Shown here: piece after piece, positions 3,991 to 58,818 of the stretch | Numbering within the stretch: position 1 is the stretch's first letter | Layout: every line of letters begins with the position of its first letter | Source: Gloeomargaritales cyanobacterium VI4D9 | GTDB taxonomy: Bacteria > Cyanobacteriota > Cyanobacteriia > Gloeomargaritales > Gloeomargaritaceae | Assembly (NCBI GenBank): GCA_927797885.1 | Contig: OV696605.1 | Location: 1,587,157 to 1,651,156 of the forward strand | Direction of reading: 5' to 3' | DNA length: 64,000 nucleotides | Notes under the pieces: generated by a model | Seen by the model: the letters and a program-made list of their open reading frames with translations, nothing else | The model's database searches: none | Told to the model about the DNA's origin: nothing | Position numbers and translations under genes: made by a program

Positions 3991-4091
3991 TATAGCAGTC
4001 CTAAATGAGAATAGAACAAGGGTCGCAGGGGCACCGCCCCCGTTCTTGGTTTTGGGAAATTTTTGTTGGTTAATCAAATAGGATTGCTATA
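3991..4091 (+). repeat. Family A MITE-like repeat
   Basis: This 101-bp copy is bounded by TATAGCAGTCCTAAATGAG and AAATAGGATTGCTATA, with core GTCGCAGGGGCACCGCCCCC. It is the first of three copies standing head to tail. The rest of 3540-4480 outside the repeats holds no gene that I can see. Confidence 0.85.
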
Positions 4092-4341
4092 TCAGTAATT
4101 GGAATCACCTCACCTATAGCAATCCTAAATGAGAATGGAAAAAGGGGTCGCAGGGGCACCGCCCCCGTCCTTGGTTCTGGGAAATTTTTGTTGGTTAATC
4201 AAATAGGATTGCTATATCAGTAATTGGAATCACCTCACCTATAGCAATCCTAAATGAGAATGGAAAAAGGGGTCGCAGGGGCACCGCCCCCGTCCTTGGT
4301 TCTGGGAAATTTTTGTTGGTTAATCAAATAGGATTGCTATA
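4092..4341 (+). repeat. Perfect tandem duplication of a 125-bp unit containing family A
   Basis: Positions 4092-4216 and 4217-4341 read the same base for base. Each unit is a 23-bp spacer starting TCAGTAATTGG, followed by a 102-bp family A copy (4115-4216 and 4240-4341). The lack of any difference implies a very recent duplication or gene conversion. Confidence 0.85.
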
Positions 4342-4507
4342 GTTCCTTCAGTAAATATACGTTAATTGAGGAAAATGGTTTATTTTCTACGAAAAAATAC
4401 TTACTTTTTAGAGATTAAGGATTTTTTGTGATTTTTATCACTGGCAAACCTTATCCCTTACTACAAGGATGGAATTACTGTGATTGACCCCGCTCCTGGT
4501 TTGTCCT

Positions 4508-29906: not shown

Positions 29907-30168
29907 GGGCACTTCTAAAAATAGGTCGCAGGGGCGTAGCCTCCGTCTTGATGCTTGATAGCCTGCGTGGCGTAGCCATTAGTATGGGGATTTTAGCGAA
30001 ATATCGTAGTTTCAAACAAGTTTGCGACATTCGCCTTTACCTACACCCCCTGTCTTAAAGGGAGGGAACCTTTATTGATTTGAACAATCATAAATCCCAT
30101 CGTGGGAATGCCCATATTAGCCAGAACCAAGGGCGGGAACCGCTAACTTTGAATTGATAGAGGTGCCC
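29907..30168. repeat. Family E repeat, 262 bp, composite
   Basis: The element is bounded by GGGCACTTCTA and TAGAGGTGCCC (10 of 11 bp inverted). It contains a Gln-like... none coding: inside are a GTCGCAGGGGC core, a TTCAAACAAGTTTGC segment shared with 44070-44100 in reverse, and from 30063 a GGGAACCTTTATTGATTTG block shared with 57611 and 57845. It looks like several repeats joined. The intergenic stretch 29813-30353 holds no gene I can see. Confidence 0.55.
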
Positions 30169-43916: not shown

Positions 43917-43960
43917 CGGGGGCTAGGGGAAAATACCATCCTCAGCCGACTAAAATTCCC

Positions 43961-44265
43961 GAGAGTTTCAAGTATAGTTGTTCTGTTTTAGAATGCGACA
44001 CTTTTTAGGTATTTGCAATCGCTCTATCCCTTTCCAGGAGAGGGTTTGTAGGTGAAAGCGAATGTTGCAAACTTGTTTGAAATGACTATAAATGTCGTAT
44101 GGTGATCAACGCCCAAAATCCTTTCAGGGAGATATAGCAGTCCTAAATGAGAATGGAACAGGGGGTCGCAGGGGCACCGCCCCCGTCCTTGGTTCTGGAG
44201 CATTTCTGTTTGTAAGGATTGCTATATGTCCCATGCCAACATTAATAAAGTAAAGTGAAACTCTC
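43961..44265 (+). mobile_element. Family C MITE-like element with 8-bp target duplication; family A nested inside
   Basis: It is bounded by GAGAGTTTCA and TGAAACTCTC, a perfect 10-bp inverted repeat. AAATTCCC occurs immediately on both sides (43953-43960 and 44266-44273), a perfect 8-bp target duplication. A family A element occupies 44133-44226. No transposase frame is present. A shorter relative is at 57631-57743. The rest of 43917-44330 shows nothing else. Confidence 0.8.
44133..44226 (+). repeat. Family A MITE-like repeat nested in family C
   Basis: TATAGCAGTCCTAAATGAG to AAGGATTGCTATA, 94 bp, with core GTCGCAGGGGCACCGCCCCC. It lies between TTTCAGGGAGA and TGTCCCATGCC, where the related element at 57631-57743 has 19 other bases and no family A. 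Confidence 0.85.
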
Positions 44266-44330
44266 AAATTCCCAAGCCGGGAATCTGGGAATCATCATCT
44301 TGGCAACTGTCGGACTCAGTTGCTTAACCC

Positions 44331-55591: not shown

Positions 55592-56317
55592 CTAAGGGTA
55601 CTGTTCCCATGATGCCCCAATCAGCGCCAGCGCGACGACCGGTGCGGTGACGGTACGCAAAACCCGCCCCCCCAGGGACACCAACTGCCCCCCCTGGGCC
55701 TGTAACCAAGCCATTTCCGCCGGACTCCACCCCCCTTCCGGCCCGATGAGTACCGCCAAAGCCGCCGGTTCCCGGGGCAGTACGGTCAAAAGATGCGGGC
55801 ATTCCGGCGACGGGTCGCACACCAATTTGGGCATATCCCCCACCTGGTTTAGGGCTGTGACCAAAGGTTGAGCCGGAAACACCGCCGGTATCCATTGCCG
55901 CCAGGACTGTTCCGCCGCTTCTACCGCAATCCGCCGCCACCGTTCAACGCGCCCAGGGCCAGGATGCACCTGCGTCCGTTCCGTGAGCAACGGCCAAATC
56001 TGCCGCACCCCCAGTTCCGTCGCTTGCCGTACCACCTGATCCATCCCATCCCCCTTGGGAATTCCCATCAGCAGTGCGATAGGGGCAGGCAGTTCCCGCC
56101 AAATGGGTAATAATTCTCCTAGTTGTGCCGTCGTCGGGGTAAGTAACTGTGCCTGCCACCAATGCCCCTGCCCGTCCATCGCAATAAATTCATCCCCCAC
56201 CGCCAACCGCAACACCCGCCCCAGGTAATGGCTTTGCGCCGGGGTCAAATGCACCTGTTGCCCCTGAATTTGCTGGGGGTGAATGGTTAACCGCTGATAC
56301 CCCGCCAGGGCGTTCAT
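55592..56317 (-). CDS. rsmE: 16S rRNA (uracil-1498-N3)-methyltransferase
   Basis: A SPOUT-class enzyme methylating U1498 of 16S rRNA. 241 residues: the N-terminal RNA-binding part has HYLGRVLRLAVGD. The knot has LLMGIPKGDGMDQVVRQATELGV, IGPEGGW and LGGRVLRTVTAP. The last motif has V where many bacteria have E. I believe cyanobacterial members often differ here. The stop is 12 bp before pepF. Confidence 0.93.
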   Translation of the reverse strand: MNALAGYQRLTIHPQQIQGQQVHLTPAQSHYLGRVLRLAVGDEFIAMDGQGHWWQAQLLTPTTAQLGELLPIWRELPAPIALLMGIPKGDGMDQVVRQATELGVRQIWPLLTERTQVHPGPGRVERWRRIAVEAAEQSWRQWIPAVFPAQPLVTALNQVGDMPKLVCDPSPECPHLLTVLPREPAALAVLIGPEGGWSPAEMAWLQAQGGQLVSLGGRVLRTVTAPVVALALIGASWEQYP

Positions 56318-56494
56318 GGGCTGAGTAGCTACTGGGCAAGACTCATACAGTTTTGCATAAGGAAGAATTTTTATTTCTCATGTTGTGGCTTCCCTCCCTA
56401 CGATATTATTAAATGCGTGTAAAATTCTTAAAAATTTTAATTTGGAACAGCCTGCCGTAGCTAGCAATCCCGACCATCGTTACCGTGAATTTCA

Positions 56495-56594
56495 TATAGC
56501 AATCCTACTTGATTAACGAATGGGAATTACTTAGAACCAAATACGGGGACGGTGCCCTGCGACCCCTATTTTACTTCCATTTGGGATTGCTGTA
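56495..56594 (-). repeat. Family A MITE-like repeat
   Basis: 100 bp, in reverse orientation relative to those before 45 kb: TATAGCAATCCTACTTGATTA to TTTGGGATTGCTGTA, with core GGGGACGGTGCCCTGCGACCCC. The rest of 56318-56642 shows no gene. Confidence 0.8.
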
Positions 56595-56642
56595 GTATCC
56601 ATCAACCATTCTCACATTTACATTTCCCTACAGCCGTCACAT

Positions 56643-57080
56643 CTAACCTGGATTGTCCGGGGCGGGGGTTTGCTCCGCTTGTTGCCGATTGGCGCAATTT
56701 TCCTGCACTTTCGCATCTTTAGTCAGTTCCGCAGCCCGGCAGAGGTCGGCGGTTCCCTGTTCCGTGCGCCCTAGGGCGAAATAGGCAATGGCTCGATGGC
56801 GTAACAGCACAGGATTGTCCGCATTGGCCTCCAACACCTTGGTCAAATCCCGGACAGAGTCTTGATATTCCCCCAATTTCAGGTAGGCAATTCCTCGTTG
56901 TTCGTAGGCGGGTAGGTGATCGGGGCGCAGTTGCAATACCTGGTTCATTTTTTGCACCGCTTCAGCAGGGCGACCCTGTTTAAGCGCCAACACCCCTTCC
57001 TCATAGACTTTGTTGGTATCTGGGGCACAACCAGCTACCGCCAGTGCCAGCATCCACCCTAGCAATCTCCACCCTTTCAT
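56643..57080 (-). CDS. TPR-containing lipoprotein
   Basis: 145 residues. The N-terminus (KGWRLLGWMLALAVAGC) is a lipoprotein signal with lipobox VAGC, so the mature protein is anchored by lipid at the new Cys. Three TPR units follow (KVYEEGVLALKQGRPAEAVQ, PAYEQRGIAYLKLGEYQDSV, VLLRHRAIAYFALGRTEQG). It ends in a Pro/Gln-rich tail. The ATG at 57080 has GGGAG 8 nt upstream. It is probably an envelope scaffold. It lies 28 bp after a tsaD remnant on the same strand. Confidence 0.85.
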   Translation of the reverse strand: MKGWRLLGWMLALAVAGCAPDTNKVYEEGVLALKQGRPAEAVQKMNQVLQLRPDHLPAYEQRGIAYLKLGEYQDSVRDLTKVLEANADNPVLLRHRAIAYFALGRTEQGTADLCRAAELTKDAKVQENCANRQQAEQTPAPDNPG

Positions 57081-57107
57081 GTCCAACTCCCGGTCGCTCC
57101 TATTACT

Positions 57108-57197
57108 CTACCTCTGAACGGCCAACACCCGTTGATTTTGCACGACTGCCACCGCTGTTCCATCACAACTAGTTTCAATGGCTAAAAGAGTGGTCAT
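57108..57197 (-). pseudogene. 5' remnant of tsaD (tRNA threonylcarbamoyladenosine synthase)
   Basis: A 29-codon frame reads MTTLLAIETSCDGTAVAVV and then QNQRVLAVQR before TAG. AIETSCD-x-TAVA is the N-terminal signature of TsaD/Gcp/Kae1. Full TsaD is about 340-350 residues and nothing of the rest follows, because the TPR lipoprotein begins 28 bp downstream. The intact gene must be elsewhere, since TsaD is normally essential. The remnant may keep the original tsaD promoter, which could now drive the lipoprotein. Confidence 0.65.
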
Positions 57198-57223
57198 GGA
57201 ATTGCGTAAATTTTCTACGCTTC

Positions 57224-57345
57224 TATAGCAATCCTATTTAATTAACGTTAGCTTGCGTGCCGTAGGCATACAAAAATTTCCTAAAACCCAAGATGGGGGC
57301 GGTGCCCCTGCGACCCCTATTCCATTTTCATTTAGGATTGCTATA
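57224..57345 (-). repeat. Family A MITE-like repeat with an internal insertion
   Basis: 122 bp: TATAGCAATCCTATTTAATT to CATTTAGGATTGCTATA. About 22 extra bases containing TGCGTGCCGTAGGCAT lie after the left end. A similar string (TGCGTGGCGTAGCCAT) occurs in the family E block near 29960. Confidence 0.8.
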
Positions 57346-57387
57346 TACCAGTGTAATCCTCTTTTAATGTTGAGCAAACGATGATAC

Positions 57388-57498
57388 AGTCTATCTATCA
57401 ATTAAAGGATACAAAAAGCCTCGATTATCCTAAAGGCTTACCATAATTGACCTACGGCAAGTGGGGTTCAACTGTATCCCATAACCACTCAAAAGACT
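57388..57498 (+). repeat. Family D MITE-like element, 111 bp, copy 2
   Basis: It shares AGTCTATCTATCAATTAA, GGATACAAAAAGCCT, CGGCAAGT and ACTGTATCCCATAACCACTC with the copy at 49380-49492, in the same orientation. It lies inside the repeat-filled gap 57087-58122. Confidence 0.7.
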
Positions 57499-57504
57499 GT
57501 AATT

Positions 57505-57570
57505 CACTTGATTAACGAATAGAAATTTCCCAGAACTAAAGATGGACACGGTGCCCCTGCGACCCTTGAT
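57505..57570 (-). repeat. Family A MITE-like repeat, partial
   Basis: CTTGATTAACGAATAGAAATT, CCCAGAACTAAAGATGGACA and GGTGCCCCTGCGACCC match reverse-orientation family A. Both inverted termini are missing or eroded. Confidence 0.5.
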
Positions 57571-57611
57571 TGTTTAAGGATAAAAAAGTATAAAATTCAC
57601 TCATAATTCAA

Positions 57612-57840
57612 GGGAACCTCTATTTATTTGGAGAGTTTCAAGTAAATAATGATGTCGCATGGTGATCAGCGCCTAAAATCCTTTCAGGGAGAGAGGTTTG
57701 CTAAAATTATGTCCCATGCCGACATTAGTAAAATGAAACTCTCTTTATTTGAGCCAATCATAAACCTCTTCGTTGGCATACCCATATTATATTACCCAGA
57801 ACCAAGGGCGGGGGTGCCCCCTGCGACCGCTAACTTTGAA
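57612..57840 (+). repeat. Family E repeat interrupted by family C
   Basis: It starts GGGAACCTCTATTTATTTG, is interrupted at 57631-57743 by a family C element, then continues TTTATTTGAGCCAATCATAA. After that come an ACCAAGGGCGGGGGTGCC core and CGCTAACTTTGAATTTA, which match the block at 30063-30158. Confidence 0.55.
57631..57743 (+). mobile_element. Family C MITE-like element, 113 bp, with 8-bp target duplication
   Basis: Inverted ends GAGAGTTTCA and TGAAACTCTC are the same as at 43961-44265. TTTATTTG flanks both sides (57623-57630 and 57744-57751), a perfect 8-bp duplication of family E target sequence. It is shorter than the other copy because about 110 bp and the nested family A are absent. 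Non-coding. Confidence 0.8.
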
Positions 57841-57844
57841 TTTA

Positions 57845-57952
57845 GGGAACCTCTCTTTATTTGAACCAATCATAAATCCCATCGTGGGAATGCCCATATT
57901 AGTCAGAACCGAGGGCGGGGGTACCTCCTGCGACTTAATTTTTAGAAGTGCC
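57845..57952 (+). repeat. Family E repeat, uninterrupted copy
   Basis: It starts GGGAACCTCTCTTTATTTG and ends AGAAGTGCC, 108 bp. The 5' 60 bp match the copies at 57612 and 30063. It shows the uninterrupted state of the site occupied by family C in the copy at 57612. The remainder of the gap to 58122 shows only a possible faint repeat around 58010-58050. Confidence 0.6.
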
Positions 57953-58122
57953 TTTAATTTAATTGATGAATAGACTATAATTCAAGCGTAATTGCTCCGG
58001 TTATGCCAAATCATTTTCAGACATTCACCTTTACTCCTAACCCTTATGCTAAAAGGGAAAAGAGGAGTTAAGACTGCCTAAAAACTGTCGCCGTGCCACT
58101 TGAATACCCATGACATAACAAT

Positions 58123-58818
58123 ATGGTACTTCTGCCCACGCCCACCATTCCGCCATTAGAAAATGGGGATCATCTGTCCCAGGCGGAATTTGAACGCCGT
58201 TATCAGGCCATGCCCCCCGGCACCCATGCCCAACTCATCGAAGGAGTGGTTTATATGGCCTCCCCCCTGCGGATCAAAAGTCACGGCGAACCGCATGGGG
58301 ATATAATTGGCTGGCTGTGGAATTACAAGGTGGCGACACCGGGGGTGGTCTTGGGGATTGAACCCACCGTGCGGCTTGACCCGGACAATGAACCCCAACC
58401 GGATGCGGTGCTGTTTATCCCCGGTCGGCAGGCTACCATTAGCGAGGATGATTTCATTGTGGGGGCACCGGAATTGATTGTGGAAATTGCCGCCAGTAGT
58501 GCCGCCATTGATGTGCATGATAAAAAATCTGCCTACGCCCGCAATCGGGTGCAGGAATATCTGGTCTGGCGTACTTTGGAGCAAACCCTGGACTGGTTCC
58601 GCTGGGTGGACGGGGAGTATCAGGCGCAACGTCCCGATGGGGATGGCATTTTCCGCAGTCAGGTGTTTCCAGGGCTGTGGCTCGACCCGGTGGCATTGGT
58701 GCAGGGAGATTTAGCCCAGGTTTTATCGGTGCTGGCACAGGGCATCCATACCCCCGCCCACCAGGAGTTTGTGCAGAACCTTACCGTTCCTGCCGGTTCC
58801 AGCTTGGATCAGGGATAA
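58123..58818 (+). CDS. Uma2 family (DUF820) putative nuclease-fold protein
   Basis: 231 residues of the very abundant cyanobacterial Uma2 family, predicted to have a PD-(D/E)XK endonuclease-like fold. Visible parts are LSQAEFERRYQAMPPG, the acidic NEPQPDAVLFIPG, ELIVEIAASSAAIDVHDKKS and VQEYLVWR. Substrate and role are not known. A C-terminal tail of about 40 residues extends past the usual end. The ATG at 58123 follows a long repeat-rich gap, and no strong ribosome-binding site is seen. Confidence 0.85.
   Translation: MVLLPTPTIPPLENGDHLSQAEFERRYQAMPPGTHAQLIEGVVYMASPLRIKSHGEPHGDIIGWLWNYKVATPGVVLGIEPTVRLDPDNEPQPDAVLFIPGRQATISEDDFIVGAPELIVEIAASSAAIDVHDKKSAYARNRVQEYLVWRTLEQTLDWFRWVDGEYQAQRPDGDGIFRSQVFPGLWLDPVALVQGDLAQVLSVLAQGIHTPAHQEFVQNLTVPAGSSLDQG

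What the first reader, a model, noticed from the sequence alone, without database searches (positions are those of the whole stretch)
57612..57952. Second family C insertion, inside a family E repeat, with an uninterrupted E copy next to it
C at 57631-57743 is flanked by TTTATTTG on both sides, and the uninterrupted target (GGGAACCTCTCTTTATTTG) exists 100 bp downstream at 57845. This is an internal filled-site/empty-site comparison within one locus and good evidence that C moves.
Basis: seen in the sequence. Interest (0 to 1): 0.65.

Follow-up and report, generated by a model that had tools for sequence, protein, structure and literature searches.

The report
Transposon fragment nested inside another repeat
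A 113-base non-coding jumping element, which an IS1-type transposase would be expected to move, landed inside a different small repeat in a cyanobacterial genome and duplicated 8 bases of its target; this is ordinary MITE biology, unusually well documented, in a genome whose intergenic regions hold clusters of nested MITEs.

Summary
C (57631-57743) is a 113-bp element with inverted ends (GAGAGTTTCA/TGAAACTCTC) and a perfect 8-bp direct repeat, TTTATTTG, on both sides. Removing C and one repeat restores a continuous E repeat that matches more than 20 uninterrupted E copies. The interpretation (C moves) is supported and can be sharpened. C is a MITE whose first 23 bp are identical to the end of an intact 805-bp IS1-family insertion sequence in another cyanobacterium. 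IS1 copies and own-genome C copies share an 8-bp target duplication beyond chance. The congener G003 carries about nine C copies. One correction: the neighbouring E at 57845 is a tandem paralogue that differs by one base in the target, not a true empty site. A true orthologous empty site exists for the window's other C copy (43961-44265, duplication AAATTCCC): G003 has a single AAATTCCC and no C there. At 57.6 kb G003 has one unbroken E and no C, but other changes blur the comparison. New member of a known kind. Side finding: gene order differs between the congeners, and 7 of 9 breaks in the window overlap MITE copies.

The parts
57631..57743 (+). Element C: 113-bp MITE, terminal inverted repeats GAGAGTTTCA / TGAAACTCTC; IS1-type ends
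   Evidence: fold z-score -3.65 as single-stranded DNA
57623..57630 (.). Left copy of 8-bp target duplication TTTATTTG
57744..57751 (.). Right copy of 8-bp target duplication TTTATTTG
57612..57843 (+). E1: E-family repeat interrupted by C (E sequence at 57612-57630 and 57744-57843); its right terminal repeat is missing
   Evidence: alignment
57845..57953 (+). E2: uninterrupted E-family repeat, tandem neighbour of E1
30063..30168 (+). E3: uninterrupted E-family repeat
43961..44265 (+). Other C copy of the window, 305 bp, carrying two further repeats inside it (about 43973-44090 and 44133-44226)
   Evidence: orthologous empty site in G003
43953..43960 (.). Left target duplication AAATTCCC of the 44-kb C copy
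44266..44273 (.). Right target duplication AAATTCCC of the 44-kb C copy
57383..57505 (.). H: another small repeat in the same intergenic region, mostly absent from the G003 orthologue
57223..57348 (.). A-family repeat (TATAGCAATCC ends) in the same intergenic region

Best explanation
[quoted passage not shown] Shown: it has IS1-type terminal inverted repeats, encodes no transposase, and inserted into an existing E repeat with duplication of 8 bp (TTTATTTG). Inferred: the transposase binds the ends of C, makes staggered cuts at the AT-rich target and joins C there, and repair yields the 8-bp duplication. The likely source in this genome is one of several IS1-like remnants whose left end reads GAGAGTTTCAACTTYATAATG; the best of these looks broken, so the enzyme may since have been lost. 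E is an independent MITE family with its own ends (GGGCAYCTCTAT / ATAGAGGTGCCC) and a 4-bp duplication signal, and it was there before C arrived.
For: Perfect TTTATTTG duplication and restored E. Ten 113-bp C copies (2 own, 8 in G003) align without gaps at 88-97% identity. First 23 bp of C are identical to the end of an 805-bp element present 8 times in G012, whose second reading frame matches PF03400 DDE_Tnp_IS1 at 1.3e-13. Perfect 8-bp duplications flank four of the eight G012 IS1 copies and three G015 copies; permutation p=0.0005 at exactly 8 bp in both the IS1 set and the own-genome C set. Orthologous empty site in G003 for the 44-kb C copy: single AAATTCCC, no insert. Own-genome IS1-like genes with related ends. 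E copies elsewhere are uninterrupted at the C position.
Against: The interior of C (about 70 bp) has no detectable similarity to the IS1 elements examined, so C is tied to IS1 by its ends and duplication length only. The right end of C matches the IS1 end less well (81% over 21 bp). G003 C copies do not show the 8-bp signal (p=0.35). No IS1 transposase gene like the query was detected in G003 although it holds about nine C copies. No movement was observed directly.
Confidence: 0.9

Rival explanations
1. The arrangement is a recombination chimera: the right end of C (GAAACTCTC) resembles the start of E (GAACCTCTC), so a C copy and E copies were joined at this short similarity and the TTTATTTG repeat is just E sequence present twice.
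For: GAAACTCTCTTTATTTG (C end plus right flank) and GAACCTCTCTTTATTTG (E2 start) agree at 16 of 17 positions. Several E copies occur in tandem and lack an end, so recombination does occur among them.
Against: It would need an independent E fragment ending exactly at TTTATTTG next to the first base of C. The E consensus at this point is CTCTA, not CTCTC, so the 16/17 match depends on one base peculiar to E2. The 8-bp duplication recurs at unrelated sites, including AAATTCCC at 44 kb with an orthologous empty site.
Confidence: 0.05
2. C is mobilised by a transposase of another family that makes 8-bp duplications, and the match of its ends to IS1 is superficial.
For: Only the ends are shared with IS1. 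Other families also make 8-bp duplications; a 187-nt Microcystis MITE with 8-nt repeats was attributed to ISL3 (PMC11448079).
Against: 23 of 23 bases at the left end are identical to an intact, multi-copy IS1-family element with the same duplication length. The ISL3-linked MITE of Microcystis begins GGCTCTTCG, unlike C.
Confidence: 0.08

Closest known systems
IS1-family insertion sequences of cyanobacteria (805-bp element of genome G012; ISMae3 of Microcystis, PMC11448079, is IS1-like by the authors' naming)
   Same: 23-bp left end identical to the G012 element; 8-bp target duplication
   Different: C is 113 bp, has no transposase gene, and its interior is unrelated. ISMae3 itself was not compared by sequence.
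Cyanobacterial MITEs: Nezha of Anabaena/Nostoc (cited in PMC10969869; details from own memory) and the 187-nt Microcystis MITE with 8-nt repeats (PMC11448079)
   Same: Short, no transposase gene, inverted ends, foldable, direct target repeats, mainly intergenic
   Different: The Microcystis MITE has GGCTCTTCG ends and is assigned to ISL3. Nezha was attributed to ISNpu3-like elements (memory; not compared by sequence).

Membership tests
MITE | Short, no transposase gene, terminal inverted repeats | tested here: met
   113 bp; ends GAGAGTTTCA/TGAAACTCTC; 21-nt arms 81% complementary; no ORF of 80 aa or more over it
MITE | Multiple dispersed copies of defined length | tested here: met
   2 own plus 8 G003 copies of 113 bp, plus a 232-248 bp subfamily with a further repeat inside
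MITE | Target-site duplication of fixed length | tested here: met
   8 bp; permutation p=0.0005 in own genome. Not significant in the 8 G003 copies (p=0.35).
MITE | Matching autonomous element | tested here: met
   IS1-family element with identical 23-bp left end, in another cyanobacterial family. In the own genome only remnants with related ends were seen.
IS1-family element shortened by internal deletion | Interior derived from the IS1 element | tested here: not met
   No interior similarity to the G012, G015 or own IS1 sequences, so C is filed as a MITE with IS1-type ends, not as a deleted IS1
IS1-mobilised MITE | Mobilisation by an IS1 transposase | not testable with these tools
   Needs an in vivo or in vitro assay

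The most novel reading that the evidence does not exclude
Nested MITE clusters like this one, which share sequence modules across families, supply the short homologies that scramble gene order between two congeners whose genes are still about 92-95% identical. Seven of nine synteny breaks in this window overlap MITE copies, and at the C-bearing locus the G003 version looks like a deletion between a shared A/E core motif.
Probability: 0.35. Interest if true: 0.55.

Novelty: new member of a known kind. Interest (0 to 1): 0.33.

Why it matters
It adds a MITE family with IS1-type ends and a fixed 8-bp target duplication, with insertion of the family shown by an orthologous empty site in a congener. 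It also shows MITEs of different families stacked inside one another (C in E; F, A and another repeat inside C), giving a relative order of arrival. The same clusters sit at synteny breaks between two close genomes, so they are a concrete, testable candidate for what rearranges this lineage.

Tried and rejected
Distant search of plasmid records found nothing. Rfam found no RNA family in 56300-58200. L049/L050 and the 803-bp span in L029 were checked as possible parents and show no IS1 transposase. Clean empty sites in the own genome for G003 C copies, and in G003 for own C copies L022, L026 and L041, were not obtained because left and right flanks lie at different places in the other genome. 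My pasted flank query was shortened (2949 of 3840 nt), so absence of a hit there proves little. The organism name was not established; the one named match (uncultured cyanobacterium) indicates a cyanobacterium, and Gloeomargarita is only a guess.

Full report
Observation. The sequence shows GGGAACCTCTATTTATTTG, then a 113-bp block starting GAGAGTTTCAAGTAAATAATG and ending TAAAATGAAACTCTC, then TTTATTTGAGCCAATC. Taking out the block and one TTTATTTG gives GGGAACCTCTATTTATTTGAGCCAATCATAAA, which aligns along its length with E2 (57845), E3 (30063) and more than 20 further E copies of the same genome, all uninterrupted at this point.

E2 is not the empty site of E1. It is a tandem neighbour, differs by one base in the target (CTCTC against CTCTA), and E dimers of this kind exist elsewhere in the genus. 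The comparison is good evidence for insertion but is paralogous. Since the end of C (GAAACTCTC) happens to resemble the start of E2 (GAACCTCTC), a chimera had to be considered; the family-wide 8-bp rule and the congener's empty site make that unlikely.

Family-wide test. I collected C copies by their ends from the own genome, from the congener G003, and from genomes G012 and G015, and compared left and right flanks with permuted pairs. At exactly 8 bp the own-genome copies (0.49 vs 0.32) and the G012/G015 elements (0.65 vs 0.38) exceed permutation at p=0.0005; own copies also at 7 bp (p=0.0015), neither set at 9 or 10 bp. The G003 copies do not show it (p=0.35). At 57.6 kb the duplication is 8/8, which together with 95% identity to the nearest G003 copy, against 88% to the other 113-bp own copy, suggests a comparatively young insertion. 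That dating is inference.

Orthologous empty site. The other C of the window runs from 43961 to 44265 with AAATTCCC on both sides. In G003 the flanking sequence is continuous with a single AAATTCCC followed by the right flank, and no C (the aligned blocks end at G003 1913053 and 1913092). This C copy holds two other repeats, one bounded by TATAGT../..ACTATA and an A copy; since they lie inside C and the C duplication is perfect, they probably arrived after C. At 57.6 kb the G003 orthologue (371477 to 369625, reversed) holds one unbroken E, with CTCTATTTATTTGAGCC as in E1, and lacks C and most of H; the A-like and E sequences there look joined at a shared motif. C is absent there, but the site is not a clean single-event comparison.

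Source of the machinery. In G012, of another family of the same class, the first 23 bp of C are identical to the end of an 805-bp element present 8 times. It has two overlapping reading frames; the second matches PF03400 (IS1 transposase) at 1.3e-13. Four of its eight copies have perfect 8-bp duplications. G015 holds related elements. In the own genome, IS1-like genes sit next to ends reading GAGAGTTTCAACTTYATAATG; the best (L142) has a 139-aa first frame, a short second frame, and is followed by a different transposase-like frame where its right part should be. No matching transposase was detected in G003. C's interior matches none of these, so I call it a MITE with IS1-type ends.

Subfamily. 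Several own copies are 232-248 bp and contain, at the same position after GAGAGTYTCAAGTAAATAATGAT, a further repeat F beginning GGGCACC; their outer flanks differ. The simplest reading is that F entered C once and the composite then spread, but I did not test this on a tree.

E family. E copies with both ends show a 4-bp flank signal (0.77 vs 0.55, p=0.001) with ends GGGCAYCTCTAT/ATAGAGGTGCCC. E is thus a separate mobile family. From memory, IS5-type elements make 4-bp duplications; no parent of E was sought.

Mechanism. Shown: ends, duplication, empty site for the family, dispersed copies, a candidate transposase family. Inferred: that an IS1 transposase acts on C in trans, and that the own genome's or an earlier host's IS1 supplied it. 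The fold of C as single strand is stronger than 200 shuffles (z -3.65), as expected for a sequence with inverted ends and not evidence of a separate function.

Known context. A MITE review lists MITEs in cyanobacteria including Nezha (PMC10969869). A Microcystis study reports IS1-like ISMae3 elements and a 187-nt MITE with 8-nt repeats assigned to ISL3 (PMC11448079). My searches of the held open-access library found no paper describing a cyanobacterial MITE with IS1 ends; most subscription papers and ISfinder are not held, so this is weak evidence of novelty.

Side finding. Window and G003 are about 92-95% identical in large blocks but the blocks lie at many places in G003. Of nine breaks read, seven overlap MITE copies, which cover 2.7 kb of 64 kb. 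Both breaks and MITEs are intergenic, so this lacks a proper control.

Noticed in passing
window 5001-62705: Gene order is scrambled relative to congener G003 although large blocks are about 92-95% identical; 7 of 9 breaks overlap MITE copies. No intergenic control was done.
   Followed up: partly
L023, L026, L028, L030, L032, L041 (own genome): A 232-248 bp subfamily of C has another MITE (F, GGGCACC start) at one fixed position, with differing outer flanks: a composite MITE that seems to have spread as a unit.
   Followed up: partly
window 57508-57567 and 57796-57843; G003 L141: A and E families have different ends but share an interior motif (CCAGAACCAAGG..GGTGCCCC..TGCGACC); in G003 the two look joined at this motif with the DNA between them missing.
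   Followed up: partly
L052; G003:C1:360016-360337 and 625141-625468: E repeats occur as tandem dimers or longer arrays in which one unit lacks its right end.
   Followed up: no
L142 1190-1663: An IS1-like gene (526-945) is followed on the other strand by a DDE transposase-like frame of 157 aa where the IS1 right part should be; looks like one element broken by another.
   Followed up: no
window 4015-4389: Three A-family copies at 125-bp tandem spacing, two of them 97% identical.
   Followed up: no
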